49,373 bases of DNA from Chloroflexota bacterium. GTDB lineage: Bacteria > Chloroflexota > Limnocylindria > Limnocylindrales > CSP1-4. A model generated the notes under the pieces. The model was given only the letters and a program-made list of their open reading frames with translations, had not been told where the DNA came from and did no database searches. The stretch covers positions 1-49,373 of the forward strand of contig JAKAJU010000185.1 of the NCBI GenBank assembly GCA_021813655.1, in the 5' to 3' direction. The position numbers and the translations under genes are program-made. Positions 6,190 through 26,082 of the stretch are shown piece after piece; position 1 is the first letter of the stretch; every line of letters starts with the position of its first letter.

Positions 6190-7239
6190 GTGTCGGACGG
6201 ACGGGCGCTGGAGTTCGGTGTCAACCTCAACAACCGCGAGCCGCTGATCGCGCCCGACTACGACATCCACCAGCTGCTCGACCTCTCCCAGAACGTCGAG
6301 GGCCTGGGCTTCGACTCCGTGTGGGTGGGTGACAGCCTCTTCTCCAAGCCCCGCTACGAGGCGATCGCACTGCTCTCGGCGATCTCGCAGCTGACGAGCC
6401 GGGTGAAGCTCGGGACGGCGTGCCTCGTCACGTCGCCGCGGAACCCGCTCTACCTCGCCCTCGAGTGGGCGACCCTCGACGTCCTGTCGGGCGGCCGCAC
6501 GGTGTTCGGGCCCTGCGCCGGCAACCCGGAGGTAGGGGTCCGCCGCGAGTTCGAGGCGCTCGGGCTCGACTTCGACAGGCGGTTCGCGATCTTCGAGGAA
6601 GGCCTCGGGATCCTGCGGACACTGTGGACCGAGGGGAAGGTCACCCACCACGGCGAGCAGTACACGTACGACGACGTCTCGTTCTTCTCCGGCACCGAGA
6701 TGGGACCGCTCATGCCCATCCAGAAGCCGCCGCCTTTCTGGATCGTCTCCAACCCGCGCCTCGTGACGAACGCTGCGGACGAGAAGATGGTCCGGACGAT
6801 GAAGAACGCGTGCCGGCGGGTCCTCAAGTACGGCGAGGGCTGGATGACGTGCTGCCGGGCGATGCATCCCGAGGAGCTGGTCGAGCAGCTCGGGTACTTC
6901 CGAGACGTGGCAACCGAGTCGGGCGACGACGCGGGCCGCCTCGTCGTGAGCTACCAGGTCACCCTGAACATCGGGGACTCGGAGGACGCGGCCCGAACCG
7001 CCTTCGGCGAGTACATCGGCAAGTACTACCCCGAGCTCTCGAAGGCGATGGACCTCTCGAACTGGGGGCCGGTGGGGACGCCCGACCAGATCATCGCGTG
7101 GTTCAGGACGTTCGCCGAGGCGGGCGTGGACCACTTCATCTGCCGGTTCGGCTCGCTCGACCAGTTCGGGCAGATCGACCGCTTCGCCCGCGACGTCGTG
7201 CCCGCCCTGCGCGAGCACGTCCGGGTCACAGTGAGGTAG
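6190..7239 (+). CDS. LLM class (luciferase-like) flavin-dependent oxidoreductase
   Basis: LEFGVNLNNREPLIAPDYDIHQLLDLSQNVEGLGFDSVWVGDSL... luciferase-like TIM barrel. First gene of the + operon behind the palindrome. Confidence 0.8.
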   Translation: MSDGRALEFGVNLNNREPLIAPDYDIHQLLDLSQNVEGLGFDSVWVGDSLFSKPRYEAIALLSAISQLTSRVKLGTACLVTSPRNPLYLALEWATLDVLSGGRTVFGPCAGNPEVGVRREFEALGLDFDRRFAIFEEGLGILRTLWTEGKVTHHGEQYTYDDVSFFSGTEMGPLMPIQKPPPFWIVSNPRLVTNAADEKMVRTMKNACRRVLKYGEGWMTCCRAMHPEELVEQLGYFRDVATESGDDAGRLVVSYQVTLNIGDSEDAARTAFGEYIGKYYPELSKAMDLSNWGPVGTPDQIIAWFRTFAEAGVDHFICRFGSLDQFGQIDRFARDVVPALREHVRVTVR

Positions 7240-9802: not shown

Positions 9803-12096
9803 CCGTCATCGACGTCAAGGGGCCGACCGTCGGCGCGGGCCAGGTCGGCCGGTCCATGCGCCGCGTCGACGCGGACGAGAAGCTCCGCGGCGAAGCCCAG
9901 TACGTCGGTGACATCGTCATCCCGGGGATGCTCCACGGGAAGGTCCTGCGGAGCCCCGTGCCGCGCGCGCGCATCGTGTCGATGGACACGGCCGCGGCCG
10001 CGACGATGCCCGGCGTCGTCGCGATCCTCACGGGCGACGACCTCCTCGACATCGACCCGTTCTGGGGTCACGCGATCAAGGACCGACCGATCGTCGCCAT
10101 TGGCATGGTCCGCTTCGTCGGCGAGCCCGTGGCCGCGGTGGCCGCCGTCGACGAGACGACCGCGGAGGCCGCGGTGAAGGCGATCGTCGTCGAGTACGAG
10201 GATCTGCCGGTCGTCGGGACGCTCGACGAGGCGCTGGCGCCCGACGCACCCCTCGTCCACGACGGGCCGACCCGACCCGGGCTCTTCCACGGCCTCGGGA
10301 CGCTGCCGGAGCGCGACGGCAACGTCTGCTACCGGTACAGGATCGGCACCGACGAGGTGGACCCGATCTTTGAGACCGCGGAGGTCGTCGTCGAGGGGAC
10401 GTACGAGTTCCCCGGCGTCTACCAGTACGCGATGGAGACGCACGGCGTCGTGGCGCAGGTCGACGGGACCGGGATCACCCTATGGGCGACGTGCCAGCAC
10501 CCGTTCCTCGTCCGCGCCGAGATCGCGGCGCTCTTCGACGTCCCCCTCGGCAAGGTCCGGATCCACGTCCCGTACCTCGGTGGCGGCTTCGGGAGCAAGT
10601 CCTACACGAAGATGGAGCCGATCACCGTCGCGCTCGCGCGCAAGGCGGGCCGGCCGGTCCGGATCGTCAACCGGGTCGACGAATCGATGGTGACCACGCG
10701 TCGCCACAACGCGCGGACCTGGATGCGGACCGCCGCGACGAGCGACGGTCGCCTCCTCGCGCGGGAGGCGCGCGTCTGGTTCGACACCGGCGCGTACGCG
10801 GATAACGGACCGCGTGTCACCGCGACCGGCGGCGACGCGGCGCCGGGCCCCTACCGCTGGTCGGCGATGCGCGTGGACGCCCTGTGCGTCTACACGAACA
10901 CCGCGCCGTCGGGCTCCTACCGGGCCTTCGGTGCCTCGCACCTGCAGTGGGTCGGCGAGCTCCAGGTCGACGAGGTCGCCAGGACCGTCGGGATGGACCC
11001 GGTCGAGATCCGCCGGCTCAACCTCGCGAGGCCGGGCGACGAGGTCCGCCGCGGCGGCAAGCCGCTCGACGCGGACCTCGTCGGCGACGTCGAGAAGGTC
11101 GCGGACGCGCTGGGCTGGGATCGGCCGCGCGACGCGGACACCGGCCGCGGGCTCTCGGTGGGGCTCCTCGCGGCCGGCGCTCACCCGGTCTCGAGCGCGG
11201 TCGTCCGCATGGAAACCGACGGCGACGTAGTCGTGCTCGTCGGGTCCACGGAGATGGGACAGGGCCAGCGCACGGCGATGGCGCAGATCGCCGCCGAGGT
11301 GCTCGCGATGCCCGCGGAGCGGGTGCGCTGCCAGGGGACGGACACGCGGTTCACGCCGTACGATCGCTCCACCGGCGCCAGCCGCTCCACGACGCTCGCG
11401 GGACTCGCCGTCCAGAAGGCCGCCGCCGAGGTCCGCGAGGACCTGCTCGACATCGCCGCGCTCGTCTGGCCCCACCCCGTCGCGTCGATCGAACTGCGCG
11501 ACGGGGCCGCCCGGTGCGGCGGGGAGAGCCGGACCTATCCAGAGCTCATCGCCCGGCGCTTCGGCCTCTCCGGCGGCCAGCTGACCGGCGAGGCGGACGT
11601 CCACCCACAGGGGACCGGCTCGTATGCCGAGGGACCGGTCTTCTGGGAGGTCTGCATCGCCGCCGCGGAGGTGCACGTGGATCGGGCGACCGGCCAGGTC
11701 ACCGTCCGGCGGACGGCGACCATCGCCGACGTCGGCAAGGCGATCAACCCGCAGCTGGTCGAGCGACAGGACGAGGGAGCGACGATGCAGGGCATCGGCA
11801 ACGCCCTCTTCGAGGAGATGGTCTACGCCGACGGGATCCTCCTCAACGACAACCTGCTCGAGTACCGCGTCCCCACCATCGAGGATCTCCCGGCCCACTC
11901 GACGTGCGTCATCGTCGAGAACGGGGACGGGCCGGGGCCATTCGGCGCCAAAGGATGTGGCGAGGGAGCCTTCGCCGGGATCATCGGGGCGATCGCGACG
12001 GCGGTAGCCGACGCCGGCGTGCCCGTTCGAGAGCTGCCGCTCACGCCGGAGCGTGTGTGGCGAAGCATCCAGGAGATGCAGGAGGATCATCGATGA
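9799..12096 (+). CDS. Molybdenum hydroxylase large (molybdopterin) subunit, xanthine dehydrogenase family
   Basis: YVGDIVIPGMLHGKVLRSP, ETHGVVAQVDG, LGGGFGSKSYTK, SYRAFGASHLQW, GAKGCGEGAFAG. GTG start overlapping the small subunit. Confidence 0.9.
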   Translation: MTVIDVKGPTVGAGQVGRSMRRVDADEKLRGEAQYVGDIVIPGMLHGKVLRSPVPRARIVSMDTAAAATMPGVVAILTGDDLLDIDPFWGHAIKDRPIVAIGMVRFVGEPVAAVAAVDETTAEAAVKAIVVEYEDLPVVGTLDEALAPDAPLVHDGPTRPGLFHGLGTLPERDGNVCYRYRIGTDEVDPIFETAEVVVEGTYEFPGVYQYAMETHGVVAQVDGTGITLWATCQHPFLVRAEIAALFDVPLGKVRIHVPYLGGGFGSKSYTKMEPITVALARKAGRPVRIVNRVDESMVTTRRHNARTWMRTAATSDGRLLAREARVWFDTGAYADNGPRVTATGGDAAPGPYRWSAMRVDALCVYTNTAPSGSYRAFGASHLQWVGELQVDEVARTVGMDPVEIRRLNLARPGDEVRRGGKPLDADLVGDVEKVADALGWDRPRDADTGRGLSVGLLAAGAHPVSSAVVRMETDGDVVVLVGSTEMGQGQRTAMAQIAAEVLAMPAERVRCQGTDTRFTPYDRSTGASRSTTLAGLAVQKAAAEVREDLLDIAALVWPHPVASIELRDGAARCGGESRTYPELIARRFGLSGGQLTGEADVHPQGTGSYAEGPVFWEVCIAAAEVHVDRATGQVTVRRTATIADVGKAINPQLVERQDEGATMQGIGNALFEEMVYADGILLNDNLLEYRVPTIEDLPAHSTCVIVENGDGPGPFGAKGCGEGAFAGIIGAIATAVADAGVPVRELPLTPERVWRSIQEMQEDHR

Positions 12097-13013
12097 CCAC
12101 GTTCAGCAAGGTCGCGATCATGGGCACCGGGACGATGGGGCCCGGCATGGGCGCCGTCTGTGCGCGCGCGGGCATGCAGGTCGCCATGTACGACGTGAGC
12201 GCGGACGCGATCGAGCGCGCGAAGGCCGGCTACGACATGGCCTGGGGCGTCCTCGATCGCCTCGAGGCCCCTGTCGTCCCCGGCGGGTCGGTCCGCTACG
12301 CGTCCGACGTGGCAGGGGCCCTCGACGGCGCCGAGTTCGTCATGGAGGCGATCCCGGAGAAGCTCGACCTCAAGAAGTCGGAGTTCGCGAAGTACGAGCA
12401 GCACGTCGGCCCTCACGTGATCCTCGCCTCGAACACCTCGGGCATCCCGGCGACGAAGATCGCGGCCGACCTCGCGCATCCCGAACGCGTCGTCGTCATG
12501 CACTGGTCCAACCCGCCGCACCTCATCCCGATGATCGAGATCGTGCCGGGCGAGAAGACCTCCCAGGCCACCATCGACGGCACGAAGGCCGTGATCGACG
12601 AGGTCGGCTACTACCCGTGCCTCCTGAAGAAGGAGGTCCCCGGGTTCGTCGAGAACCGCGTCCTCTACGCCATCATGCGCGAGTGCCTGGCGCTCGTGGA
12701 CGAGGGCGTCGTGGACCTCGATGAGCTCGACCTCAACGTGAAGTGGGGGATCGGGTACAAGCTCGCCGTCATCCCGCCGATGCACCTCCTCGACATGGCC
12801 GGGATGGACATCTACAAGGCGGTCGCGGGCTACCTCAACCGCGACCTGTCGAACGCATCCGAGGTGAGCCCCACGATCAACGCCCTCGTCGAGAAGGGCC
12901 GGCTCGGGATGAAGACCAAGGGCGGCCTCTTCGACTACACGGACGAGGAGATCGGAGCGCTCCGCTCGGAGCGTGCGAAGAAGCTCGTCGCCGTCCGCAA
13001 GGCGATCAGCTAG
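12093..13013 (+). CDS. 3-hydroxyacyl-CoA-dehydrogenase-fold enzyme; predicted 5-formyl-3-hydroxy-2-methylpyridine-4-carboxylate 5-dehydrogenase
   Basis: GTGTMGPGM Rossmann motif; MHWSNPPHLIPMIEIVPGEKT, PGFVENRVLYAIMRE, WGIGYKLAVIPPMHLLDMAGMDIYKAV, ERAKKLVAVRK match blocks recalled from the M. loti enzyme. Confidence 0.8.
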   Translation: MTTFSKVAIMGTGTMGPGMGAVCARAGMQVAMYDVSADAIERAKAGYDMAWGVLDRLEAPVVPGGSVRYASDVAGALDGAEFVMEAIPEKLDLKKSEFAKYEQHVGPHVILASNTSGIPATKIAADLAHPERVVVMHWSNPPHLIPMIEIVPGEKTSQATIDGTKAVIDEVGYYPCLLKKEVPGFVENRVLYAIMRECLALVDEGVVDLDELDLNVKWGIGYKLAVIPPMHLLDMAGMDIYKAVAGYLNRDLSNASEVSPTINALVEKGRLGMKTKGGLFDYTDEEIGALRSERAKKLVAVRKAIS

Positions 13014-13060
13014 CGGCCGAGGCCGGCGCGTCCATCACCTGCGAGAGGGAGGTCCGGATC

Positions 13061-13810
13061 GTGAAGATCTACCTGCTCGACCTCGGGTCGCTCGTCATCG
13101 ACCGTTCCGACGTGCTCTGGCACATCGACGTCGGCACGCCGGTCCGATTCCCCGTGTACGGGGTCTACGTCGACCATCCCGAAGGGAAGTTCATCTTCGA
13201 CACCGGGTACGACCTCGATCACGTGAACAGGGTCCTGCCCTTCGAGCTGCCCGAGCAGACCCCGGAGCAGACGGTCCCCGCGCAGCTCGCCAAGTGCGGC
13301 GTGAAGCCCGAGGAGGTCGACTTCGTCATCAACTCGCATTTCCACTTCGACCATGTCGGTGGCAACAAGTACCTCACGAACGCGACTCTGCTGACGAGCA
13401 AGCACGAGCTGCGCTCGTGCCTGGTGCCGGAGCCGTTCGAACGCCTCGGCTACTCCGACCTGAGCTTCTACCAGCGCGGAGCGACGAAGGTCGAGTACCT
13501 CGAGGGCGACACCGAGATCGCGAAGGGGCTGACGCTCTTCGAGACCCCCGGCCACACGATCGCCCACTACTCGCTCCTTGCGGAGCCCGAGGGCAGGCGC
13601 CCGATGATCTTCACCGGCGACGCCGCGTACTCCTACGAGACGCTCGACCGGATGATCGTCGGCGGGTTCCATCTCGACCCCGTCCACTCGATCAGCGCCC
13701 TGAAGCGCATCAAGTCGATGGCCAAGAAGCACGACGCGGAGGTCTTCGTCTCGCACGACATGGAACCGTGGCTCACGTGGAAGCGCGCACCGGAGTTCTA
13801 CGGCGCCTGA
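13061..13810 (+). CDS. Metallo-beta-lactamase-fold lactonase; predicted 4-pyridoxolactonase
   Basis: NSHFHFDHVGGNKY zinc motif; VRFPVYGVYVDHPEGKFIFDTGYDLDHVNRVLPFE and FERLGYSDLSFY match blocks recalled from M. loti 4-pyridoxolactonase. Confidence 0.8.
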   Translation: MKIYLLDLGSLVIDRSDVLWHIDVGTPVRFPVYGVYVDHPEGKFIFDTGYDLDHVNRVLPFELPEQTPEQTVPAQLAKCGVKPEEVDFVINSHFHFDHVGGNKYLTNATLLTSKHELRSCLVPEPFERLGYSDLSFYQRGATKVEYLEGDTEIAKGLTLFETPGHTIAHYSLLAEPEGRRPMIFTGDAAYSYETLDRMIVGGFHLDPVHSISALKRIKSMAKKHDAEVFVSHDMEPWLTWKRAPEFYGA

Positions 13811-13885
13811 GGCACCCCACCACACCACGCTCCGGCCTCGGCCGTGCCCCGTCCGTGGCCGGCGTCCAACCAGGGAGACGTTGAG

Positions 13886-14620
13886 ATGAAGCTCGAGGGA
13901 CGCGTCGCGATCGTGACAGGTGCGGCACAGGGCATTGGACAGGCGATCGCCGGGAAGCTCGCCGCGGAGGGCGCAACGGTCGTCGTCGCGGACATCAACG
14001 GCGCGGGGGCGGCGAAGGTCGCGGCGGCGATCCCCGGCGCCTCCGCGTACACGATCGACATCGCGGACGAGGCCCAGGTGAAGGGTCTCGTCGCCGACAC
14101 GGTCGCGAAGCATGGGAAGATCGACGTCCTCGTGAACGACGCCGCGATCGTGCCGTACAAGGAATGGGACGACATCGACTTCGCCGAGTGGCGCCGGATC
14201 ATGGCCGTCAACCTCGACGGCACCTTCCTCATGTGCCGCCACGTGAGCGACGAGATGCGCACGAAGGGCTACGGCCGCATCGTCAACATCTGCTCGAACG
14301 TCATCGTCGCCGGGACCCCGAACCTCGCCCACTACGCCGCATCCAAGGGCGGCGTCTTCGGACTCACCCGCGTCCTCGCGACCGAGCTCGGCAAGTACGG
14401 CATCACGGCGAACCAGGTCGCCCCCGGCCTGACCGCGAGCGAGGGCGTCATGGCCGGCAAGTTCGTCGAGTCGTTCGACTTCGTCCAAATGCTCCAGTCG
14501 ATCCCGCGCCGCGGCGTCCCGGCGGACATCGCCCCGGCCGTCGCGTTCCTCGCGTCCGAGGAGTCGGGCTGGATCACCGGGCAGATGCTCGTCGCCGACG
14601 GCGGGCACACGCGCCACTAG
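13886..14620 (+). CDS. SDR family dehydrogenase; predicted pyridoxal 4-dehydrogenase
   Basis: TGAAQGIG, AIVPYKEWDDIDFAEWRRIMAVNLDGTF, AGTPNLAHYAASKGGVFGLTRVLATELGKYGITAN, SFDFVQMLQSI, WITGQMLVADGGHTRH match blocks recalled from M. loti pyridoxal 4-dehydrogenase. Confidence 0.8.
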   Translation: MKLEGRVAIVTGAAQGIGQAIAGKLAAEGATVVVADINGAGAAKVAAAIPGASAYTIDIADEAQVKGLVADTVAKHGKIDVLVNDAAIVPYKEWDDIDFAEWRRIMAVNLDGTFLMCRHVSDEMRTKGYGRIVNICSNVIVAGTPNLAHYAASKGGVFGLTRVLATELGKYGITANQVAPGLTASEGVMAGKFVESFDFVQMLQSIPRRGVPADIAPAVAFLASEESGWITGQMLVADGGHTRH

Positions 14621-14651: not shown

Positions 14652-15053
14652 ATGGCTGACTTCCCCGTCAAGCGGATCGGGGCGATCTTCGCGGTCGCCG
14701 ACGTCGACCGCTCGGCCGCCTTCTATCGCGACCACTTCGGGTTCGCGGTCGAGGCTCTGTTCGAGGGCCCCGCCTACGCGATCCTCGTGCGAGACGGCGT
14801 GCGGCTCTCGCTCGCGGAGCAGGGCCACCCGGCGTCCGACCTGCCCGGCTACGTGATGACGGCGCAGGCCGATCCGTCGGAGGCTGCCGCCGCCCTCGTC
14901 CTCGAGGTCGACGACGCGATGGCCGTCCATGCCGCCCTCCTCGCCGATGGCGTCGTATCGGTCGCGCCGCCGTACGCGCCGCCGTGGGGCGGCTGTCGGT
15001 TCTTCGTCGCGGACCCGGACCGGCACCTGATCGAAGTCGAGCAGACGGCATGA
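14652..15053 (+). CDS. VOC (glyoxalase/bleomycin resistance/dioxygenase) superfamily protein
   Basis: IFAVADVDRSAAFYRDHFGF...CRFFVADPDRHLIEVEQ. Confidence 0.85.
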   Translation: MADFPVKRIGAIFAVADVDRSAAFYRDHFGFAVEALFEGPAYAILVRDGVRLSLAEQGHPASDLPGYVMTAQADPSEAAAALVLEVDDAMAVHAALLADGVVSVAPPYAPPWGGCRFFVADPDRHLIEVEQTA

Positions 15054-16081
15054 GGGCCGTCGCCTCGCTGGGTCCCGAGAACGTCCAGCTCATCGACGCG
15101 CCGGAACCGGTGATCGAAGCGCCGACCGACGCCATCGTCCGCGTCTCGGCCACCGCGCTGTGCGGCGCGGACCTCTTCCCGTACCACGGTCACGTGCCCG
15201 GGTTCCTGGACGGCACGATCCTCGGCCACGAGTTCGTGGGCGTCGTGGAGTCGGTCGGCTCCACCGTGGCCACGGTGGAGCCCGGCGACCGGGTCGTGTC
15301 CAACTCCACCATCTCGTGCGGCCGGTGCACCGCATGCCGCGCGGGCCGCTCATCGCAGTGCCCGGACCGGGCGCTGTTCGGCTATTCCGGCGTCTACAAG
15401 CAGCTCCACGGCGGGCAGGCCGACCTCGTGCGGGTGCCGGTCGCCGAGCGCGCCCTCAAGGCCATCCCGGACGGCGTGACCGACGAGCAGGCCCTGTTCG
15501 TCGCGGACATGCTGCCCACCGGCTACTCGGGCTTCCGCCGCGCCGACCTCGCCTCGGGTGACGTGGCGGTCGTGGTCGGCTGCGGCACCGTCGGCCTGAT
15601 GGCGATCCTGTTCGCCGCCCGGGTCGCCCGCACGGTCATCGCCGTGGACGAGATCGCCGAGCGACGCGCTCTCGCGGAGCGGTTCGGCGCCACCGCGGTC
15701 TCCCCGGACGGGGCAGCCGGCGCCATCTCGGCTGCCACGGACGGCCTGGGCGCGGATGGCGTGATCGAGGCGGCCGGCTCCCCGGGTGCCCTGGCCGCCG
15801 CGATCGACTTCGCCCGGGGCCAGGGCACGATCTCGGTGATCGGCGCGCACTTCGAGACGGAGTTCCCGCTGGACATGGGCCTGATGTTCGAGAGGGAGCT
15901 CACGCTCCGCGTGACATGGGGTCACGGGTTCGACGATCGTGACAGGATGGTGGCGATGCTGGCCGCGGGTGTGATCGACCCCACGCCGGTCATCAGCCAT
16001 CGCCTTCCGCTCGCTGACGCGGCCGAGGCCTATCGCATGTTCGCCGCGCGGGAGGCGACGAAGGTCGTCCTCCGCCCCTAG
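15050..16081 (+). CDS. Zinc-dependent alcohol dehydrogenase (MDR family)
   Basis: LCGADLFPYHGHVPGF, GHEFVGVV, structural zinc cysteines CGRCTACRAGRSSQC, VVVGCGTVGLMA. ATGA overlap with the VOC gene. Confidence 0.85.
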   Translation: MRAVASLGPENVQLIDAPEPVIEAPTDAIVRVSATALCGADLFPYHGHVPGFLDGTILGHEFVGVVESVGSTVATVEPGDRVVSNSTISCGRCTACRAGRSSQCPDRALFGYSGVYKQLHGGQADLVRVPVAERALKAIPDGVTDEQALFVADMLPTGYSGFRRADLASGDVAVVVGCGTVGLMAILFAARVARTVIAVDEIAERRALAERFGATAVSPDGAAGAISAATDGLGADGVIEAAGSPGALAAAIDFARGQGTISVIGAHFETEFPLDMGLMFERELTLRVTWGHGFDDRDRMVAMLAAGVIDPTPVISHRLPLADAAEAYRMFAAREATKVVLRP

Positions 16082-16695: not shown

Positions 16696-17577
16696 TCAGG
16701 CCGTCGCTGCGGCCGCGCGCGCGGCCGTCTCGCGGAGGCAGCGGCCGACGAGCACCGAGACCAGATCGCGCTTGTACTCGGCGGACCCGTTGGCGTCCTC
16801 TTCCGGCTCGGCGGCCGCGGCGGCGAGGGCCCCGGCGGCGTGGACGACGGCGTCCTCCGCGAGGGCGAGGTCGGCGCCGACGAGGTCGCGCTCCGCTTCC
16901 GGGACCCGGACCGGGACCGCGCCCACGGAGCCCACAGCGATGCGCGCCTCGGCGATATGTCCGGCGTCCCCGCGGACGAGACAGGCGATCGTGGCCGCGG
17001 GCCGCTCGTGGAAGGAGAACTTCACGTGGGTCATCGCTGCCCCGGCCCCGAGAGCGGGGACGCGGATCTCCACGATCAGCTCGCCGGGCTCCAGAGCCGT
17101 TTCGTACGGCCCACGCACGAAGTCGGCCATCGCGACGCTGCGTCGCGCCCCGCCCATCCCGAGGAGCAGCGTCGCCTCGGCCGCGAGGAGGAAGGTCGCG
17201 GGGTCCGAGTGAGGATCCGCGAAGGCGAGGTTCCCGCCGAGCGAGCCCACGTTCCGGACACGGACGTTCGCGACGCGCCGCTCCATCTCCACGAGGGCCG
17301 GCCATCCGGCGCGGACGAGCGGGGAGCGCTCGATGGCGCGGTGCGTGACAGCCCCACCGATGACGAGCGTCCCGCCCTCGGCGTCGAGCCGCTGGAGCTC
17401 CGGGATCCGCTTCACGTCCACGAGGTGCGCGGGCTCGGCGAATCCGAGCTTCATGAGCAGAAGGAGCTCGGTCCCGCCGGAGTAGATGACGGCCTCGTCA
17501 CCGAGCTCGGCGAGGAGCCCCGTCGCTTCCGCGACGGACGTCGCGGAGTGCAGCTCGAACGGGGTGAGGGTCGTCAC
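16696..17577 (-). CDS. Molybdenum hydroxylase FAD-binding medium subunit (CoxM type)
   Basis: ELHSATSVAEATGLLAELGDEAVIYSGGTELLLLMKLG, NVRVRNVGSLGGNLAFADPHSDPATFLLA FAD-binding motifs. Confidence 0.9.
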   Translation of the reverse strand: MTTLTPFELHSATSVAEATGLLAELGDEAVIYSGGTELLLLMKLGFAEPAHLVDVKRIPELQRLDAEGGTLVIGGAVTHRAIERSPLVRAGWPALVEMERRVANVRVRNVGSLGGNLAFADPHSDPATFLLAAEATLLLGMGGARRSVAMADFVRGPYETALEPGELIVEIRVPALGAGAAMTHVKFSFHERPAATIACLVRGDAGHIAEARIAVGSVGAVPVRVPEAERDLVGADLALAEDAVVHAAGALAAAAAEPEEDANGSAEYKRDLVSVLVGRCLRETAARAAAATA

Positions 17578-18776
17578 GCGCTGAGCCCTGCGGCGGCGAG
17601 CGAAACCTCGGCTTCATCCGCGCTATCAGAGAGCCACGCGAGCGCTGCCTCGACGCCGGCCCCCACGTCCACCCGGGCGCCGAGGTCGAGGAGGGAGCGA
17701 CCGAGCGCGGCGAGGCCGACGATCGGGTACATCGGGCGGGCGGCGGCGCCCATGTGGCCGATCCGGATGATCGGCCCCGCGCCCTGGCCGCCGGAGAGCT
17801 GGACTCCGTACTTCGCACGGGCATGGTCGCGGAGCTGGAGGTCGGTGATCTCGTCCGGGACGCGGATCGCCGTCACGCACGGCGCGGCGATCTCCTCGCG
17901 CGCCGGCCAGATCGACAGGCCCATGCCCCTGACGCCCGCCCGACAGGCTGCGGCGACGTGCGCATGGCGGGCGATCGAGGCGTCCAGGCCTTCTTCGAGG
18001 AGGAGCGCAGCGGCTGCGTCCACCCCGTGGAGATCGGAGACCGACGGCGTGAACGGGAACTTGCCGGCGCCGTGCCACTGCTCCTTCCAGTCGAGGAGCG
18101 AGAGGAAGCTGCCGCGCGGGGCATCCGGGTTCTTCGCGATGAGCGCCCACGCCTCGTCGCTGATCGCCATGAGGGACATCCCTGGCGGTCCGCCGAGGCA
18201 CTTCTGGGGACCCGCGACCAGGAGGTCGAGCTGCCACTCGTCCGGACGCAGCTCGACTCCCCCGAACGCGCTCACGCAGTCGACGATCGTCACGACGCCC
18301 CGCGACCGGCAGATCGGCCCGATCTCGCGGACCGGGTTGAGCGTCCCGGACGGCGTCTCCGAGTGGACGACGGCGACCACCTCCACCTCGGGGTGCGCGT
18401 CGAGGTAGGCCGCGACGGCGTCCGGGTCGATCGCTTCGTCGTACGTGACCTCGATCTCGCGGAGGTCCGCGCCCATCGCCGTGAGCCAGTATCCGAAGTA
18501 CTTCCCGAAGATCCCGGAGACGAGGTTCAGGCATGCCATGCCCGGGCGGACGATCGCGCGGGCGGCGGCCTCGAGGCCGAGCACGGCCTCACCCTGCATG
18601 AGGATGATCTCGTGGCTCTGCGTGCCGTAGATTGCGCCGATCCGGTGCTCCGCGGCGCGGAAGCGCTCGATGAAGGCCGGGTCGTAGTGGTAGAGGATCG
18701 GCGAACCGAGCGCCGCGAGCGTCTCCGGGGGGACCGAGATGGGCCCGGCGGCGAGCGTGAAATCAGCGGGTCGCAT
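17574..18776 (-). CDS. Class V aminotransferase; predicted pyridoxamine-pyruvate aminotransferase
   Basis: LAAGPISVPPETLAALGSPILYHYDPAF, GEAVLGLEAAAR, AGPQKCLGGPPG (PLP lysine), PFTPSVSDLHGVD, RIGHMGAAARPMYPI match blocks recalled from M. loti PPAT rather than generic AGXT. Confidence 0.75.
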   Translation of the reverse strand: MRPADFTLAAGPISVPPETLAALGSPILYHYDPAFIERFRAAEHRIGAIYGTQSHEIILMQGEAVLGLEAAARAIVRPGMACLNLVSGIFGKYFGYWLTAMGADLREIEVTYDEAIDPDAVAAYLDAHPEVEVVAVVHSETPSGTLNPVREIGPICRSRGVVTIVDCVSAFGGVELRPDEWQLDLLVAGPQKCLGGPPGMSLMAISDEAWALIAKNPDAPRGSFLSLLDWKEQWHGAGKFPFTPSVSDLHGVDAAAALLLEEGLDASIARHAHVAAACRAGVRGMGLSIWPAREEIAAPCVTAIRVPDEITDLQLRDHARAKYGVQLSGGQGAGPIIRIGHMGAAARPMYPIVGLAALGRSLLDLGARVDVGAGVEAALAWLSDSADEAEVSLAAAGLSA

Positions 18777-19365
18777 CGTCGGCTCCTTTCGTTCTCTCCG
18801 CGCCGTCGCCGCGACCGCCGAGGCGCCGCACCGACCCGCTCACCTTTGCCCCCACCACCGAGGCGAGGAGCGAGATTCCCCCGAGCGGCTGCGTCGCAGC
18901 AGCGGCGGCATCGCCTTCGGGCGATGCGAGCCGCGCCTCGATGCATCGTGCGGCGTCGGCGATCAGCTTCCGCGAGACGTCGACGATGACGCCCTGGCCC
19001 ATCCTGGCCGCCTTCCCGCGGACGTCGAGATCCGTCGTCATCCTGACCCGTGTCACGTCGCCCTCGGGGAGGACTTCCATGAGGGTGGCGACTTTCGCGG
19101 TGTCCGCGCCGCCGGACGCCTTCCCTTCGCCCTCGATCCGGGCCGTCCGCGCCACGGGGTCACGACCGGCGATCCGGACCTTCCCGTCATACACGAACTT
19201 CATCGGGCCGAGCTTGACCGAGATGCGCCCGGAGTACGACCCGTCCGCCGCGAGCTCGCCGATCTCGCCGCCGGGGACGCACGGGGCGATCCGCCGCAGG
19301 TCGAGGAGCAGCGCGTAGGCGCGGTCGGGGTCACCGGCGATGACGAACTCATCGATGAGCCGCAT
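18763..19365 (-). CDS. coxG: CoxG family SRPBCC protein
   Basis: FVIAGDPDRAYALLLDLRRIAPCVPGGEI...YSGRISVKLGPMKFVYDGKVRI...ATLMEVLPEGDVTRVRMTTDLDVRGKAARMGQGVI. Confidence 0.85.
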   Translation of the reverse strand: MRLIDEFVIAGDPDRAYALLLDLRRIAPCVPGGEIGELAADGSYSGRISVKLGPMKFVYDGKVRIAGRDPVARTARIEGEGKASGGADTAKVATLMEVLPEGDVTRVRMTTDLDVRGKAARMGQGVIVDVSRKLIADAARCIEARLASPEGDAAAAATQPLGGISLLASVVGAKVSGSVRRLGGRGDGAERTKGADDATR

Positions 19366-19368
19366 CGG

Positions 19369-20304
19369 TCAGCGGCTCCCGCGGACGTACGGCAGCCCCA
19401 GCGCGGCCGGCAGCCGGGCCTCGCGGGCGAAGACGACGAGGACGACCATCACGGAGACGAACGGGAGCATCTGGACGACATCGACCGGGATCGAGATGCC
19501 GACCAGCTGGAGCGCGGTCGCGATCGAGAGCGACATCCCGAAGAGGAGCGCTCCGAGGACGGCGCCCCACGGATGCCCCCGGCCCATCATCGCGATGACG
19601 ATCGCGATGAAGCCCATCCCGCCGGTGAGGAAGGGAACGAAGGTCCCAGCGCCCACGATCGACATGTAGGCGCCGCCGATGCCGGCGAAGGCGCCGCACG
19701 CCATCTCCGCGACCGTCCGGACGCGGACGACGGAGACGCCCGCTGCGTCGAGGCTGTCAGGGCGCTCGCCCGCCGCGCGCAGGTCGAGGCCGGCGGTCGT
19801 GCGGCGAAAGATCCATCCGACGAGCCCGACGACGATCAGGGCCATGTAGACGGGCGCCGGCTGGCTGAAGAGGCTCCCTCCGAGGACCGGGATCTGGCTG
19901 AGGACGGGGATCGCGAAGACGTCGATGGCGTCGAGCCGAGGGTAGGACTGGCCGAAGAACGCGCCGTGGAGGAGGCTCGTGAGACCTTCCGCGCAGAGGA
20001 TGATCGAGATCCCCACGACGATCTGGTCGAGCCCGAGGCGGACGCAGAAGACGACCATCACGAGCGAGACGAGGAGGCCGGAGATCGCGCCGACGGTCAG
20101 GCCGACCCAGGCGTTCCCGGTCGCGAGCGCGCCCAGGAAGCCGCAGAAGGCCCCGGTGAGCATCATCCCCTCGAGCCCGACGTTGAGGATGCCGGACTGC
20201 TCGGCGATCGTCTCGCCGAGCGAGGCGAAGAGGAGCGGGATCCCCGCGAGGATGCCTCCCGCGATGAGGGCGGTGAGGAAGGTCGGGGTCAGGAGGTCGG
20301 ACAT
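19369..20304 (-). CDS. ABC transporter permease (BMP/nucleoside-type)
   Basis: LFASLGETIAEQSGILNVGLEGMMLTGAFCGF signature of simple-sugar/nucleoside ABC permeases. Confidence 0.9.
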   Translation of the reverse strand: MSDLLTPTFLTALIAGGILAGIPLLFASLGETIAEQSGILNVGLEGMMLTGAFCGFLGALATGNAWVGLTVGAISGLLVSLVMVVFCVRLGLDQIVVGISIILCAEGLTSLLHGAFFGQSYPRLDAIDVFAIPVLSQIPVLGGSLFSQPAPVYMALIVVGLVGWIFRRTTAGLDLRAAGERPDSLDAAGVSVVRVRTVAEMACGAFAGIGGAYMSIVGAGTFVPFLTGGMGFIAIVIAMMGRGHPWGAVLGALLFGMSLSIATALQLVGISIPVDVVQMLPFVSVMVVLVVFAREARLPAALGLPYVRGSR

Positions 20305-20305
20305 C

Positions 20306-21421
20306 CTAGGCGCTCGCCTTCCGCCGCCGGGGAACGATCCGTTCACCCCGCGCGCGCTTGTCGCTGAAGTACTGGGTGGCGACCATGAAGATGAGGATGA
20401 GCCCCACCACGAGGAGGAGGAAGTCGCTGGGCAGACCCGCCTGACGGGCCGCGTACTCCCCGCCGATCGAGACGACGCTGAAGAACGCCGCGAACGGGAT
20501 GAGCGCGAGCGCATTGAGTCGGGCGAGGAAGACGAGCGGGATGACCTTGAGGCCGTAGGCCGGGTTCCAGTCGGCCCGCATGTACCCGAAGATCCCGAGG
20601 ATGTCGACGGCAGCGGCGAGGCCGATGAGCGCGCCGCTGATGACGAACGCGAGGACGATGAGGCGCGGGACGTTGATCCCGAGATGGACGGCGGCCCGCG
20701 GGTTGGCGCCGAGGACGTCGAGCCGCGTCCCGAACGACGTCCTCGTGAGCGCCAGGTGGACGATCACGACGACGACGAGGGCGATGATCACGCCGACGTG
20801 CACCCGCGTCACGGGCAGGTCGAGCAGCATCATCCCCTTCGGGATGACGGCGGTCTGTGGGACCATCGACGTGCCCTTGAACGGGCCCTTCACGAAGAGA
20901 TTCGCGAGGCCGACGCCGATGAACGTCATCATCAGCGTCGTGATGATCTCGTTCATCCCGTAGATGGCCTTGAGCAACGCCGGGATGAGCGTCCACCCGG
21001 CGCCCACGGCCATCGCGACGAGCATGAGCACCACCCACCCGAGAGGGGCGGGGACCGTGTCCAGGACGATCGGACCGAGGCCGGCCACCATCGCCGCGGC
21101 GAGGAGATACTGGCCCTCGCTGCCCAGGTTCCACAGGGTCGCACGGAAGACGACGATAAGCCCGACCCCGATGAGGAGAATCGGGGCCATGCGCGTGATG
21201 CTGTCCTGGAGGCCGGAGGGGCGGAGGAGCCCGGCGGTGACGATGTCCTCGTAGAACGCGATGGGGTCGCGGCCCAGGACGAGGAGGATCAGGCCGCACG
21301 CGAGGAACGCGAGGATGATCGGGCCGATCGATCGGATCAGGCTGTCCGCGATGCTCGCGAGTCGGCCGGGCGCCGTGGGCTCCGCGAGGACGGCCGTTTG
21401 GGTCGTCGCAGGCGCGGTCAT
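20306..21421 (-). CDS. ABC transporter permease (BMP/nucleoside-type)
   Basis: Multi-TM; FRATLWNLGSEGQYLLAAAMVAGLG, TTLMMTFIGVGLANLFVKGPFK. Confidence 0.9.
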   Translation of the reverse strand: MTAPATTQTAVLAEPTAPGRLASIADSLIRSIGPIILAFLACGLILLVLGRDPIAFYEDIVTAGLLRPSGLQDSITRMAPILLIGVGLIVVFRATLWNLGSEGQYLLAAAMVAGLGPIVLDTVPAPLGWVVLMLVAMAVGAGWTLIPALLKAIYGMNEIITTLMMTFIGVGLANLFVKGPFKGTSMVPQTAVIPKGMMLLDLPVTRVHVGVIIALVVVVIVHLALTRTSFGTRLDVLGANPRAAVHLGINVPRLIVLAFVISGALIGLAAAVDILGIFGYMRADWNPAYGLKVIPLVFLARLNALALIPFAAFFSVVSIGGEYAARQAGLPSDFLLLVVGLILIFMVATQYFSDKRARGERIVPRRRKASA

Positions 21422-23043
21422 GCCGCCTGCGCTCCCACGATGAGCTCGCCGATCCGCGTCTCCGCGCCGGGTCCGTTGTCCACGATGCCCGCGATCTTTC
21501 CCTCGAAGAGGACCGCGACGCGGTCCGACAGGTCGATGAGCTCGTCGAGGTCCGTTGAGATGACGACCGTTGCCACCCCGCGGCCGGCGAGCTCACGGAT
21601 GCGCTCGCGTACCATCGCGATCGTCCGGACGTCGAGGCCGTGGGTCGGCTTGCTGAAGACGACGACCCTCGGCTGGAACGAGAGCTCGCGCGCGAGCAGC
21701 GCCTTCTGGATGTTCCCGCCGGAGAGCTTCCCGATCCGAGTCTCCGACGACGGGGTCCGGATGTCGAACTGCGCGATGAGTTCGCGGGCGGTCGCGTTGA
21801 TCGCGACGCGGTCGATCGTCCCACGGCGCCAGAACGGCTTGTCCCCGATCCGCTTGAGGACCAGGTTCATTCCGACGGCGAACGGACGCACCACGCCCTC
21901 GCCGAGGCGGTCGTCCGTCACGTAGCGCAGGCCGAGCCGCTGTCGGGACGAGACCGTGAGCTTCACGATCGAGGCGGCCGCCAGCCGGATGTCGCCCGCG
22001 GACGGACGCCGCTGCCCGGCAATCACCTCGGCGAGCGCACGCTGGCCGTTCCCGTCGACGCCGGCGATCCCGAGGATCTCGCCCCCGCGGACCGCGAGGC
22101 TCACGTCGCTGACGCCGTACTGGCCGTGGTGGCCGGGCGCCGAGACGCCGACGAGCTCCAGGAGCGGCGTCTCCGACATCGTCCGTCGGACGCGGTGTCC
22201 CTCGAGGTCTTCGCGCAGCTCGGCAACGTCGGCGACCTCATCGGCCTCCTCGCCGAACATCGTGGCGACGATCCGACGCTGGAGCTGCTGCGGCGTGGAC
22301 GAGCGGAGGATCTCCGGCCCGATCGTGCCGACCACGCGCCCCTGCTTGAGGATCGTCACGCGGTCGCCGATCGCGATTGCCTCGTGGAGCTTGTGCGTGA
22401 TGAAGATGATCGCGAGGCCGCTCGTCTTGAGTTCGACGAGGACCTTCTGGAGCTCTGCGATCCCCTGGGGCGTGAGCATCGAGGTGGGCTCGTCGAGGAT
22501 CAGCACCTTTGAACCCTTCCACAGGGCCTTGATGATCTCCACGTGCTGCTGCTGGCCCAGCGCGAGCGAGCCGGCGCGCGCATCCGCGTCGACGGTGATC
22601 CCGAGCGTGGACGCGAGGTCGGCGATCCGGGTCCTCGCGGTCTTCTCGTCGAGGATGATGCCCTTGTTCGACCCGAGCATGAGGTTCTCGAGGACCGTCA
22701 GCGTCGGGATGAGGCTCAGGTGCTGGTGGACCATGCCGATCCCGAGGTCGCGGCCGCGGCGCGGTGAATCGATGCGCACGTCGCTCCCGTCGACCCGGAT
22801 TCGGCCCTCGTCCGGCCGATAGAGGCCGGAGAGGATGCTCATCAGCGTCGACTTCCCGGCCCCGTTCTCGCCCAGGAGGCAGAGGACCTCGCCGGGCAAG
22901 ACGGAGAGGCTGATGTGGTCGTTCGCGATCACACCGGGGAAGACCTTGGTGATGTCGATGAGTTCGACCGCGGGGACGGGTGTCCCCGCGGTCGAACTCA
23001 GGGTCGCCGGCGCCGGGGCGGGAGCGTCAGCCATGACGCGCAT
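21418..23043 (-). CDS. ABC transporter ATP-binding protein (two nucleotide-binding domains)
   Basis: LLGENGAGKSTLMSILSGLY, LALGQQQHVEIIKALWKGSKVLILDEPTSMLTP, LSGGNIQKALLARE. Confidence 0.95.
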   Translation of the reverse strand: MRVMADAPAPAPATLSSTAGTPVPAVELIDITKVFPGVIANDHISLSVLPGEVLCLLGENGAGKSTLMSILSGLYRPDEGRIRVDGSDVRIDSPRRGRDLGIGMVHQHLSLIPTLTVLENLMLGSNKGIILDEKTARTRIADLASTLGITVDADARAGSLALGQQQHVEIIKALWKGSKVLILDEPTSMLTPQGIAELQKVLVELKTSGLAIIFITHKLHEAIAIGDRVTILKQGRVVGTIGPEILRSSTPQQLQRRIVATMFGEEADEVADVAELREDLEGHRVRRTMSETPLLELVGVSAPGHHGQYGVSDVSLAVRGGEILGIAGVDGNGQRALAEVIAGQRRPSAGDIRLAAASIVKLTVSSRQRLGLRYVTDDRLGEGVVRPFAVGMNLVLKRIGDKPFWRRGTIDRVAINATARELIAQFDIRTPSSETRIGKLSGGNIQKALLARELSFQPRVVVFSKPTHGLDVRTIAMVRERIRELAGRGVATVVISTDLDELIDLSDRVAVLFEGKIAGIVDNGPGAETRIGELIVGAQAA

Positions 23044-23085: not shown

Positions 23086-24267
23086 CTAGCTGCCCTTGAC
23101 GAGCGCGTCCACGTCCGCCTGGGTCGGCGTGAGCGGGACCTGGATGGAGCCGTCGTTGATCCCCTGGAGGGCGGTCTGCACGGCCGTCCACTCGTCGGAG
23201 GTGATGTTCTTCGTCTGCAGGAGCGAGATGCCCCCATTGTTCACGTCGAGGGTGTAGCCCTGGTTGCCGAAGGTCCCGCCGTTGATGTCGGCGATCGCCT
23301 GCTCGAACGTAGGGCCGAAGTTCCAGAGGACGGACGACAGGAGGACGTCCTTGTTGTCCACAGGAGACTTGTCGCCGATGACGTCGATGAACCAGACCTT
23401 GTCGGCGCCGGCCGGCGGCTTCGCCGTCTCGACTGCCTGCAGCATCCCGAAAGAGGCGCCATCGCCCATCCCGAAGACGACGTCAGCGCCCCCGGAGATC
23501 ACGGTTTCCGTCACGCGCTTGCCGCCCGCCGCGTCGGCGTAGCCCGCCTGGCCGATCTGGGCCTGCAGGATCTTGATGCTCGGGTTGACAGACTTGGCGC
23601 CCGCGACGAACCCGCCGGCCTGCTTGTGCCAGTTCGTGTCGTCGGCCGAGATAACGATGCCGAGGGTGCCGGTCTTCGACGCCTTCGCGGCCAGCACGCC
23701 GGCGAGATAGGCGCCGTTCTGGCTATTCGTCTCGATGTCGGCTACGAGACCGGGCTTCGTCGCCGACGGGGAGTCGTAGACGACGACGGGGACGTTGTTC
23801 TCGGCCGCGAACTGCGGGGCCGCGGTGTTGTAGCCGGAGGCCTGCGCGACGATGAACTTCGCGCCGCCGTCGGCGAGCTGGCGGAGGATCGGAGCCGGGT
23901 CGTCATAGCCCGCCCCGTCGGCGATCTGGAGCTGCGCGCCGACGGAGGCGGCGGCGTCGCGGGCGCCCTGCACGCCCTGCTGGTTCCAGCCGTAGTCGTT
24001 CGCCTTCTCCGGCGTGATGATTCCCATGTTCGTCACCGTGTTCGCGACGCTCGGCGCGGCCGTCGCGGGAGCCTCCGTCGCCGGCGCAGCCGTCGCGGGA
24101 GCCTCCGTCGCCGGCGCAGCCGTCGCGGGAGCCTCCGTCGCCGGCGCAGCCGTCGCGCTCGGGGCGGGCGTCGCAGCGCTCGACGAGCAGGCTGCCACGA
24201 GAACCGTGACCGCCGCCAACCCGGCGGCCCAGGCACCCAGCCCGGAGTGAGTGGTGCGGACTCGCAT
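23086..24267 (-). CDS. BMP family ABC transporter substrate-binding lipoprotein
   Basis: Lipobox VLVAACSSS, Ala/Pro/Thr linker, then NMGIITPEKANDYGWNQQGVQGARDAAASVG BMP-type domain. Confidence 0.9.
   Translation of the reverse strand: MRVRTTHSGLGAWAAGLAAVTVLVAACSSSAATPAPSATAAPATEAPATAAPATEAPATAAPATEAPATAAPSVANTVTNMGIITPEKANDYGWNQQGVQGARDAAASVGAQLQIADGAGYDDPAPILRQLADGGAKFIVAQASGYNTAAPQFAAENNVPVVVYDSPSATKPGLVADIETNSQNGAYLAGVLAAKASKTGTLGIVISADDTNWHKQAGGFVAGAKSVNPSIKILQAQIGQAGYADAAGGKRVTETVISGGADVVFGMGDGASFGMLQAVETAKPPAGADKVWFIDVIGDKSPVDNKDVLLSSVLWNFGPTFEQAIADINGGTFGNQGYTLDVNNGGISLLQTKNITSDEWTAVQTALQGINDGSIQVPLTPTQADVDALVKGS
24059..24148. repeat. Tandem repeat, 3 copies of a 30-bp unit, inside the BMP lipoprotein linker
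   Basis: Three exact copies of gccgtcgcgggagcctccgtcgccggcgca, encoding the repeated linker APATAAPATE on the minus strand. Confidence 0.9.
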
Positions 24268-24382: not shown

Positions 24383-25138
24383 TCATGCCGCCACCGTGTC
24401 GGGCATCGCGTCACGGAAGAACAGCCGGCGGCCGTTCTCTCCGAGGACTCGCGAGAGGTCCTCACCCTCGACGCCGCTTACGCGGGCCTTCGAGAGCTCC
24501 ACGGTGGGGTGGTGGAATGGCGCATCCGAGCCGTAGAGGACGCGGTCGGCTCCGACGCGCTCGACCGCCTCGCGGATCTTCGTGTGCATCGGCATCCCGG
24601 AGGTCTCCAGGTAGACGTTCGGGTTGCGCGCGGCAACGTCGATCGCGGCGTTGATGTAGACGATGTTCCCGTGCCCCATGTGCCCGAGGATCACCCGGGC
24701 CGCCGGGAAGCGGACGATGAGCTCCTCGATGCTCCACGGCAGGGTGAAGATCGGGTGTCCGCAGTGAATCAGCGCCGGAAGGTCCCGCTCGATGAGCAAC
24801 TCCACGACCGGGTGGACCGCCGGGTCGTCCGGGTGGTAGCCGTCGAGGAGGGGATGGAGCTTCACCCCGCGGAAGCGCGAGCCGGGCTCATCGAGCAGGC
24901 GGCGCGTCGTCGCGACGGCGCCGGGGTCGCGCGGATTAGCCCAGACGAGGCCGTACAGGCCCGGTGTGGACGAGACGATCCGCCGCACGAGGTCGTTGTC
25001 CGGGTGGAAGATGAGGCCCGTGTCGATCCCGTGATCGCGCATCAGCGCGACGAGGCCGTCACCGTCGATCCCGACGTTGAACATCGGGAACTCGCCAGCG
25101 TGCATGTGGCTGTCGATGATCATCTGGCCGTGCGCCAC
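24383..25138 (-). CDS. Amidohydrolase (amidohydrolase_2 / TIM-barrel metal-dependent hydrolase)
   Basis: IIDSHMHAGEF, FRGVKLHPLLDGY, ALIHCGHPIF, VILGHMGHGN, VLYGSDAPFHHP. Confidence 0.85.
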   Translation of the reverse strand: MAHGQMIIDSHMHAGEFPMFNVGIDGDGLVALMRDHGIDTGLIFHPDNDLVRRIVSSTPGLYGLVWANPRDPGAVATTRRLLDEPGSRFRGVKLHPLLDGYHPDDPAVHPVVELLIERDLPALIHCGHPIFTLPWSIEELIVRFPAARVILGHMGHGNIVYINAAIDVAARNPNVYLETSGMPMHTKIREAVERVGADRVLYGSDAPFHHPTVELSKARVSGVEGEDLSRVLGENGRRLFFRDAMPDTVAA

Positions 25139-25198
25139 ACAGGCGCGGAACGGCTGGTGGAAACGGAGCGCGTACCTCGGGCATTCATCGTGCGGCGT

Positions 25199-25227
25199 AG
25201 TATGTTGCCGAGCGTGTTGACAGTCAA
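25199..25227 (-). promoter_or_regulatory. Predicted minus-strand promoter of the amidohydrolase-transporter-PPAT operon
   Basis: On the minus strand: TTGACT - 17 bp - CATACT; the -35 lies inside the palindrome. Confidence 0.5.
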
Positions 25228-25230
25228 CAC
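25214..25230. promoter_or_regulatory. Perfect palindromic operator GTGTTGAC-A-GTCAACAC
   Basis: Identical to 6151-6167; lies between the divergent amidohydrolase and gntR genes. Confidence 0.85.
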
Positions 25231-25281
25231 GAAGTTGAGGACGATGCCGGGACGCACATCAGTGTCGCAAGGGGGTCGTCG

Positions 25282-26082
25282 GTGCAAGGCGACGGCGGAG
25301 AGGGTCCACGGATGCCTGACTTCGAGAACCAGACTCTCTGGGAGAAGGTCTACCAGCACCTCAAGACGGAGATCCTGGAGAACCGGATCCCGCCGGGGAC
25401 CGTGATCCAGGAGGTCCCTCTGGCCGAGTCGCTCGGCGTCAGCCGGGGGCCGATCCGCGAGGCGCTGGGCCGGCTCGCGGCGGAAGGGCTCGTGACGGTC
25501 ACGCCGCGGCGCGGCACCGTCGTGACCGCCCTGACGAAGCGGGACTTCCTCGAGGCCTACCAGGTGCGCGAGGCGCTCGAAGCCCTCGCGGTCAGCCTCG
25601 CGGTCCCGCGTCTCACCGCGGACGACTTCGCCCATCTCGACCGCCTCATGGACGAGATGGACGCGTGCGCCGCGCGAGACGAGGTCACGGGCTTCTTCGA
25701 GGCCAACTCCGCGTTCCACGAGGCATTCGTCGTGGCCTCGGGCAACGCGAAGCTGCTGGAGATGTACCGCCTGCTCATCGGGCAGATGGGACCATACCGG
25801 CGCCCGTCCGCCTCCCTTCGCGGGAGCCTCGCGGTCTCGATCTCGGAGCATCGCGGGATCCTCGACGCCGCGCACGCCCGGGACACGCAGGCGACGATCG
25901 AGCTCGTGCTCGATCACGTCCGCGTCCCGCAGCGGCGGCTCCAGGCGATCTCCGATGCCCAGTTCCTCGACGAGGTCGCCGCCCGCTCGGCCGATGCTGC
26001 GCGTCCGGCCGGCGAGGGCGGGACCGGCGACGTGCAGGCTCCGGTGGCCGCGGCCACAGGGTCCGGGCGCGTCGGGGCCTGA
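25282..26082 (+). CDS. GntR family transcriptional regulator, FadR type with FCD domain
   Basis: LKTEILENRIPPGTVIQEVPLAESLGVSRGPIREALGRLAAEGLVTVTPRRGTVV wHTH; FCD-like effector domain. The start may be the ATG at 25312. Confidence 0.9.
   Translation: MQGDGGEGPRMPDFENQTLWEKVYQHLKTEILENRIPPGTVIQEVPLAESLGVSRGPIREALGRLAAEGLVTVTPRRGTVVTALTKRDFLEAYQVREALEALAVSLAVPRLTADDFAHLDRLMDEMDACAARDEVTGFFEANSAFHEAFVVASGNAKLLEMYRLLIGQMGPYRRPSASLRGSLAVSISEHRGILDAAHARDTQATIELVLDHVRVPQRRLQAISDAQFLDEVAARSADAARPAGEGGTGDVQAPVAAATGSGRVGA

What the first reader, a model, noticed from the sequence alone, without database searches (positions are those of the whole stretch)
25214..25230. Palindromic operator at the divergent gntR/amidohydrolase promoter, with the -35 embedded in it
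Seen: the perfect 17-bp palindrome GTGTTGACAGTCAACAC. On the minus strand it supplies TTGACT with CATACT exactly 17 bp downstream, a good promoter for the amidohydrolase-transporter-PPAT operon. On the + strand it supplies TTGACA with a weaker GACGAT at 17 bp toward gntR. Known: FadR-type GntR proteins bind short palindromes and often autoregulate. Inference: this is the GntR operator repressing both divergent units.
Basis: partly seen in the sequence, partly recalled or inferred. Interest (0 to 1): 0.75.

Follow-up and report, generated by a model that had tools for sequence, protein, structure and literature searches.

The report
Twin GntR operators of B6-catabolism genes
The palindrome is one of two identical DNA switches, the only two in the genome, that sit before the two sets of vitamin B6-breakdown genes and are very probably where the neighbouring GntR protein binds to turn those genes off; it is a solid new example of a familiar kind of gene control, with an unusual recognition sequence.

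Summary
The palindrome is real, and larger than reported: 19 bp, CGTGTTGACAGTCAACACG, at 25213-25231. An identical copy lies at 6150-6168, before the other half of the gene cluster. These are the only copies in the 3.0-Mb genome with two or fewer mismatches.

The two copies bracket two convergent operons for vitamin B6 uptake and degradation. Among 107 genomes of the bacterial family, exactly six carry 4-pyridoxolactonase. The same six carry a close GntR orthologue, and the same six carry the palindrome at B6 genes (12 sites). Between genomes the palindrome is 92-93% identical; its flanks are about 30% identical. Where the amidohydrolase gene has moved to another contig, it has its own copy. 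Degenerate versions precede gntR in many actinobacterial B6 clusters.

Best reading: the operator of the FCD-type GntR, repressing B6 catabolism. Towards the amidohydrolase operon it contains the -35 element (6/6 sites). Before the monooxygenase operon it lies just downstream of the -10, over the start site.

The motif does not fit the usual FadR-subfamily consensus. Binding, repression and ligand remain untested.

The parts
25213..25231 (.). Operator O1: 19-bp perfect palindrome CGTGTTGACAGTCAACACG in the gntR/amidohydrolase intergenic region
   Evidence: conserved in relatives
6150..6168 (.). Operator O2: identical 19-bp palindrome before the LLM-monooxygenase operon
   Evidence: conserved in 6 of 6 genomes
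25222..25227 (-). -35 TTGACT of the amidohydrolase-transporter-PPAT operon, inside O1
25199..25204 (-). -10 CATACT of the same promoter, 17 bp from the -35; [C/G]ATACT at 17-18 bp in 6 of 6 sites
25198..25203 (+). Candidate -10 TAGTAT of gntR, overlapping the minus-strand -10 with a 1-bp offset (inferred)
   Evidence: TAGTAT in 5 of 5 loci with a divergent gntR, CAGTAT in the one locus without
6140..6145 (+). -10 TATCAT of the LLM operon, 5 bp upstream of O2 (17-mer), so that O2 covers the predicted start site
   Evidence: TATCAT/TAGGAT/TATGAT 1-5 bp upstream of the operator in 6 of 6 genomes
25312..26082 (+). gntR: GntR winged-helix domain plus FCD domain, proposed repressor
   Evidence: Pfam PF00392, PF07729; orthologues
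24383..25138 (-). Amidohydrolase (Amidohydro_2), first gene of the minus operon; start aligned with relatives is 25123
23086..24267 (-). BMP-type substrate-binding protein, putative B6 ABC transporter
   Evidence: NF047927 above cut-off
19369..23043 (-). B6 ABC transporter: ATPase 21418-23043, permease 2 20306-21421, permease 1 19369-20304
   Evidence: NF047930 and NF047929 above cut-off, NF047928 below its cut-off
18763..19365 (-). CoxG-like small protein of the minus operon (name from reading the sequence)
   Evidence: no NCBIfam match
17574..18776 (-). Pyridoxamine-pyruvate aminotransferase-like protein
   Evidence: NF046070 456.6 bits, below cut-off 600; best PDB match by E-value is 2z9u
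16696..17577 (-). FAD subunit of a xanthine dehydrogenase-type molybdo-hydroxylase
6190..7239 (+). Luciferase-like (LLM) monooxygenase, first gene of the plus operon
   Evidence: PF00296
7245..12096 (+). M29-like protein, cupin, class II aldolase-like decarboxylase, XDH small and large subunits
12093..14620 (+). FHMPC 5-dehydrogenase-like (12093-13013), 4-pyridoxolactonase (13061-13810), pyridoxal 4-dehydrogenase (13886-14620)
   Evidence: NF042925 406 bits, below cut-off 500; NF047925 and NF047923 above cut-offs; PDB 4om8 and 3aj3
14652..16081 (+). VOC-type protein and zinc alcohol dehydrogenase, end of the plus operon

Best explanation
The palindrome is the operator of the divergently encoded FCD-type GntR. 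A GntR dimer binds two identical operators. One (O1) overlaps the -35 of the promoter for the amidohydrolase-B6 transporter-PPAT-XDH FAD subunit operon and probably also blocks early transcription of gntR itself. The other (O2) covers the start site of the monooxygenase-to-ADH operon. Without B6-type substrate both convergent operons are shut off; a pathway metabolite bound in the FCD domain is expected to release the repressor. Shown here by sequence: two operators, their position relative to promoters, their conservation, and their co-occurrence with gntR and the B6 genes. Inferred: that GntR is the binding protein, that the effect is repression, autoregulation, and the nature of the ligand.
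For: Only two copies in the genome, both before B6 genes. Of 107 family genomes, the same six have 4-pyridoxolactonase, a GntR orthologue of at least 57% identity and the palindrome (three other genomes have one stray match each; Fisher p = 5e-8). All 12 sites lie before LLM, amidohydrolase, or gntR/BMP; in G016, where amidohydrolase and gntR/BMP lie on separate contigs, each has its own copy. Operator 92-93% identical against 29-39% in 50-bp flanks. Promoter geometry conserved: TTGACT-N17/18-[C/G]ATACT in 6/6 on the amidohydrolase side, -10 just upstream of the operator in 6/6 on the LLM side. A profile of the 12 sites finds related sites before gntR in 15 of 25 orthologues from outside this set, against 4 of 50 more distant GntR genes (p = 3e-6). 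A single site lies near the middle of the divergon, as usual for FadR-subfamily sites that serve both units (PMC4494728). Recognition-helix residues (V35, G46) are characteristic of this clade.
Against: No binding or expression data. The motif lacks the TKGT-N2/3-ACMA core of FadR-subfamily sites (PMC4494728). About 40% of the more distant orthologue upstream regions show no significant site. The gntR promoter itself is weak and uncertain.
Confidence: 0.88

Rival explanations
1. The palindrome is a binding site of some other regulator encoded elsewhere (for example a TetR- or LacI-type protein), and GntR acts through a different site.
For: The sequence does not match the usual FadR-subfamily consensus (PMC4494728). 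Two of the three genomes of the same genus without the cluster still have distant GntR paralogues.
Against: Presence of the palindrome tracks this GntR orthologue exactly; it is found before gntR in several phyla; no other regulator gene was recognised between the two operators.
Confidence: 0.08
2. GntR binds the palindrome but acts mainly as an activator, or as a dual regulator, of the catabolic operons.
For: Not excluded by sequence; the LLM promoter has a poor -35 and no consensus hit.
Against: At the amidohydrolase promoter the site contains the -35, and at the LLM promoter it lies downstream of the -10; both positions are typical of steric repression, not activation.
Confidence: 0.05
3. 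The repeat works as RNA (a leader hairpin or attenuator) or merely as a strong -35 element.
For: On the LLM side it would be transcribed; it contains TTGACA/TTGACT.
Against: On the amidohydrolase side it lies upstream of the start site, so it is not in that RNA; there is no terminator-like site near it; symmetry far beyond the -35 hexamer is conserved; on the LLM side it cannot be the -35 because the -10 lies upstream of it.
Confidence: 0.02

Closest known systems
FadR-subfamily (FCD) GntR repressors of catabolic divergons, as surveyed in PMC4494728
   Same: GntR plus FCD domains, palindromic operator of matching length, single site near the middle of a divergon with the regulator gene, few target operons
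   Different: Core is TTGAC-N-GTCAA (half-site TGTYRAC in the wider clade) rather than TKGT-N2/3-ACMA; FadR contact residues R35, H65, G66 are V, P, R here
Vitamin B6 degradation pathway I of Mesorhizobium loti (pyridoxal 4-dehydrogenase, 4-pyridoxolactonase, PPAT, FHMPC dehydrogenase)
   Same: Pyridoxal 4-dehydrogenase and 4-pyridoxolactonase above curated cut-offs; PPAT and FHMPC dehydrogenase are the closest families
   Different: The cluster has an LLM monooxygenase, an M29-like protein and a molybdo-hydroxylase, so later steps may differ; the held papers found in the searches describe no regulator for this pathway
Bidirectional promoters with a shared, pseudo-symmetrical -10 (PMC12825309)
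   Same: Overlapping -10 elements on both strands offset by 1 bp, predicted start sites about 18 bp apart
   Different: Proposed from sequence only; no start sites mapped here
MocR-type PdxR regulators of vitamin B6 biosynthesis
   Same: GntR family, B6-related
   Different: Different C-terminal domain (aminotransferase-like, not FCD) and non-palindromic direct-repeat sites (PMC4494728)

Membership tests
FadR-subfamily (FCD) GntR regulator | N-terminal GntR winged-helix domain | tested here: met
   PF00392, E 1.4e-19
FadR-subfamily (FCD) GntR regulator | C-terminal FCD domain | tested here: met
   PF07729, E 5.7e-29
FadR-subfamily (FCD) GntR regulator | FCD metal/ligand site residues (Asp/Asn, three His) | tested here: inconclusive
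   N132, H136, H180 in 30/30 and H202 in 29/30 orthologues; that these form the site is from general knowledge, no structure was made
FadR-subfamily operator | Palindrome with TKGT/ACMA boxes, 2-3 nt between GT and AC (PMC4494728) | tested here: not met
   Core is TTGA-CNG-TCAA in the window; TKGTnnnACMA in 0/29 and TKGTnnACMA in 1/29 orthologue upstream regions
FadR-subfamily operator | Single site near the middle of the regulator divergon | tested here: met
   Centre 25222, about 85-100 bp from the amidohydrolase start and 90 bp from gntR
GntR repressor-operator pair | Regulator binds the site in vitro and represses | not testable with these tools
   Needs EMSA or footprint and expression data
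Vitamin B6 degradation cluster | Pathway-specific enzymes | tested here: met
   Pyridoxal 4-dehydrogenase and 4-pyridoxolactonase above NCBIfam cut-offs; PPAT and FHMPC dehydrogenase best families but below cut-offs
Bidirectional promoter | Shared -10 with start sites on both strands about 18 bp apart | tested here: inconclusive
   Overlapping TAGTAT/CATACT conserved; start sites not mapped

The most novel reading that the evidence does not exclude
A previously undescribed clade of FCD-type GntR regulators, spread over Chloroflexota and several actinobacterial classes, is the dedicated repressor of vitamin B6 uptake and catabolism and recognises a non-canonical operator (TGTYRACNGTYRACA) instead of the family's TKGT-ACMA core. 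Its operator also marks alternative B6 importers (an NCS1-type permease and a PhnD-type ABC transporter) in other lineages.
Probability: 0.6. Interest if true: 0.55.

Novelty: new variant of a known kind. Interest (0 to 1): 0.45.

Why it matters
No regulator of bacterial vitamin B6 degradation turned up in the searched literature, and no paper there reports this operator sequence. If true, a single operator motif defines the B6-catabolic regulon in little-cultured Chloroflexota and Actinobacteriota, gives a simple way to find missing genes of the pathway, including alternative B6 transporters, and offers a case in which a GntR clade has changed its recognition core together with identifiable recognition-helix residues (V35, G46).

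Tried and rejected
(a) Palindrome as a chance feature: perfect palindromes with 8-9 bp arms are common in this G+C-rich window, but not in two identical, conserved copies. (c) RNA hairpin or attenuator: the site is upstream of the transcript on the amidohydrolase side and no terminator was found. (d) Further regulon members in the own genome: remaining matches have 3 mismatches and no B6 gene next to them was recognised. I first took their long open frames as proof that they are coding, but long spurious frames are usual at 72% G+C and the true operators lie in such frames too, so that test was dropped as weak; Pfam supports coding at some sites only. (e) Stray single matches in G027, G040, G048: no GntR orthologue and no B6 cluster in those genomes. 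(g) A comparison with rhizobial B6 clusters was not done because the search tool does not take a locus as centre. (h) A search of solved structures with the M29-like protein found nothing. (i) Structure prediction of GntR was not run, since a single-chain model would not settle DNA or ligand specificity.

Full report
Observation. The 17-bp palindrome is present at 25214-25230 and extends to a perfect 19-mer, CGTGTTGACAGTCAACACG, at 25213-25231. A perfect palindrome of this size is not rare in so G+C-rich a window: about 2 with arms of 9 or more are expected. In the 3.0-Mb genome these two are the only matches with up to 2 mismatches.

Surroundings. The two copies bracket two convergent operons. 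The minus operon (25138 to 16696) holds an amidohydrolase, a BMP-type binding protein, the ATPase and two permeases of the putative B6 ABC transporter, a CoxG-like protein, a PPAT-like aminotransferase and the FAD subunit of a molybdo-hydroxylase. The plus operon (6190 to 16081) holds an LLM monooxygenase, an M29-like protein, a cupin, an aldolase-type protein, the small and large molybdo-hydroxylase subunits, an FHMPC dehydrogenase-like protein, 4-pyridoxolactonase, pyridoxal 4-dehydrogenase, a VOC protein and a zinc alcohol dehydrogenase. 4-Pyridoxolactonase, pyridoxal 4-dehydrogenase and three of the four transporter parts exceed curated NCBIfam cut-offs; PPAT and FHMPC dehydrogenase are the best-matching families but fall below the cut-offs, with 2z9u and 4om8 the best PDB matches by E-value. 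The regulator is a GntR-FCD protein.

Co-occurrence. In 107 genomes of the same family, a close GntR orthologue (57% identity or more) occurs in G003, G015, G016, G061 and G062 besides the window's own genome; the next homologues are at 42% or less. The palindrome with at most 1 mismatch occurs in the same six genomes, 1-3 copies each, plus single stray matches in three others (Fisher p = 5e-8). 4-Pyridoxolactonase occurs in exactly the same six.

Position. All 12 copies in those six genomes lie either immediately before the LLM gene or in the gntR/amidohydrolase (or gntR/BMP) region. In G003, G061 and G062 the two-operator, two-convergent-operon layout is the same as in the window. In G016 the amidohydrolase and gntR/BMP lie on separate contigs, and each has its own copy, giving three operators for three units. 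In G015 the contig ends inside gntR, so that site could not be seen. Between genomes the operator is 92-93% identical, while the 50-bp flanks are 29-39% identical.

Promoters. Towards the amidohydrolase or BMP gene, all six sites give TTGACT, 17 or 18 bp, then [C/G]ATACT; in the window this is the only promoter-like hit of the region. On the LLM side a -10 (TATCAT, TAGGAT or TATGAT) lies 1-5 bp upstream of the operator in all six genomes, so the operator covers the predicted start site. Both placements suit steric repression. Instead TAGTAT, which overlaps the minus-strand -10 with an offset of 1 bp, is kept in all five loci with a divergent gntR and is CAGTAT in the one without. This layout matches described bidirectional promoters, whose start sites are most often 18 bp apart (PMC12825309). 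The numbers are small, and this part is inference.

Wider distribution. A scan of GTDB species genomes found 29 GntR orthologues at 46-72% identity, with a gap to the rest at 37% or less. Record titles name Chloroflexi, Thermoleophilia, Solirubrobacterales, Acidimicrobiaceae, Nitriliruptoraceae and others. Most lie in B6 clusters; in many actinobacterial loci gntR heads the LLM operon and diverges from the transporter genes. A profile of the 12 Chloroflexota sites finds related, more degenerate sites 27-250 bp before gntR in 15 of 25 independent orthologues, against 4 of 50 distant GntR genes (p = 3e-6). Reading these sites together gives the half-site TGTYRAC (by eye). In L072 a copy stands 27 bp before an NCS1-type permease, and in L079 another stands about 190 bp before a PhnD-type binding protein, which fits alternative B6 importers.

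Comparison with what is known. FadR-subfamily sites have TKGT/ACMA boxes with 2-3 nt between GT and AC (PMC4494728). The present core can be laid on the same 11-bp frame as TTGA-CNG-TCAA, but the T of GT is replaced by A; the canonical motif is absent from the orthologue upstream regions (0/29 and 1/29). The FadR contact residues R35, T46, H65 and G66 (PMC4494728) align with V35, G46, P65 and R66; V35 and G46 are characteristic of the clade, while other GntR genes found have mostly Q35 and T46. The G/C-preferring Arg at the R35 position is missing and Pro at position 47 is said to avoid G/C at the K of TKGT, which agrees with T at that place here. Thus it works like a FadR-type repressor-operator pair, the protein is a member of the GntR-FCD family by domain content, and the operator is a variant that fails the subfamily's consensus. 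The papers searched report neither this motif nor a regulator of B6 degradation; the library is incomplete, so this is weak evidence of novelty.

Limits. Everything here is sequence comparison. Binding by GntR, repression, autoregulation and the effector are not shown. The statistical tests treat related genomes as independent and so overstate significance; the sharp contrast between operator and flank is the more robust argument.

Noticed in passing
window 6150-6168: Second identical operator before the LLM-monooxygenase operon; together with O1 it brackets the whole B6 cluster.
   Followed up: yes
window 9335-12096 (+) and 16696-17577 (-): The molybdo-hydroxylase is split: small and large subunits in the plus operon, FAD subunit at the end of the convergent minus operon. 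Identical operators would keep them co-expressed.
   Followed up: partly
window 6190-8246 and 9335-12096: LLM monooxygenase, M29-like protein and molybdo-hydroxylase inside a B6 cluster suggest that ring hydroxylation and cleavage differ from the M. loti pathway.
   Followed up: no
L045:1261, L047/L048 (amidohydrolase at L048:1820-2554), L050:6699: In G061, G062 and G016 the amidohydrolase start codon lies 6-7 nt after the -10, which predicts a leaderless mRNA; in the window the promoter lies about 70 bp upstream of the start.
   Followed up: partly
L072:8294-8306 and L079:392-404: Operator copies before an NCS1-type permease (PF02133) and before a PhnD-type substrate-binding protein (PF12974): possible alternative vitamin B6 importers.
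   Followed up: partly
window 28038-29315: A class I/II-type aminotransferase gene (by reading) lies between gatA (26434-28023) and gatB (29293-30846).
   Followed up: no
window 33777-33807 and 38039-38068: Two perfect palindromes with 15-bp arms, far longer than expected by chance; function unknown.
   Followed up: no
L063, L078, L080: GntR orthologues in records titled Rhodospirillales, Armatimonadota and Bacillota: either horizontal transfer or misplaced contigs in metagenome bins.
   Followed up: no
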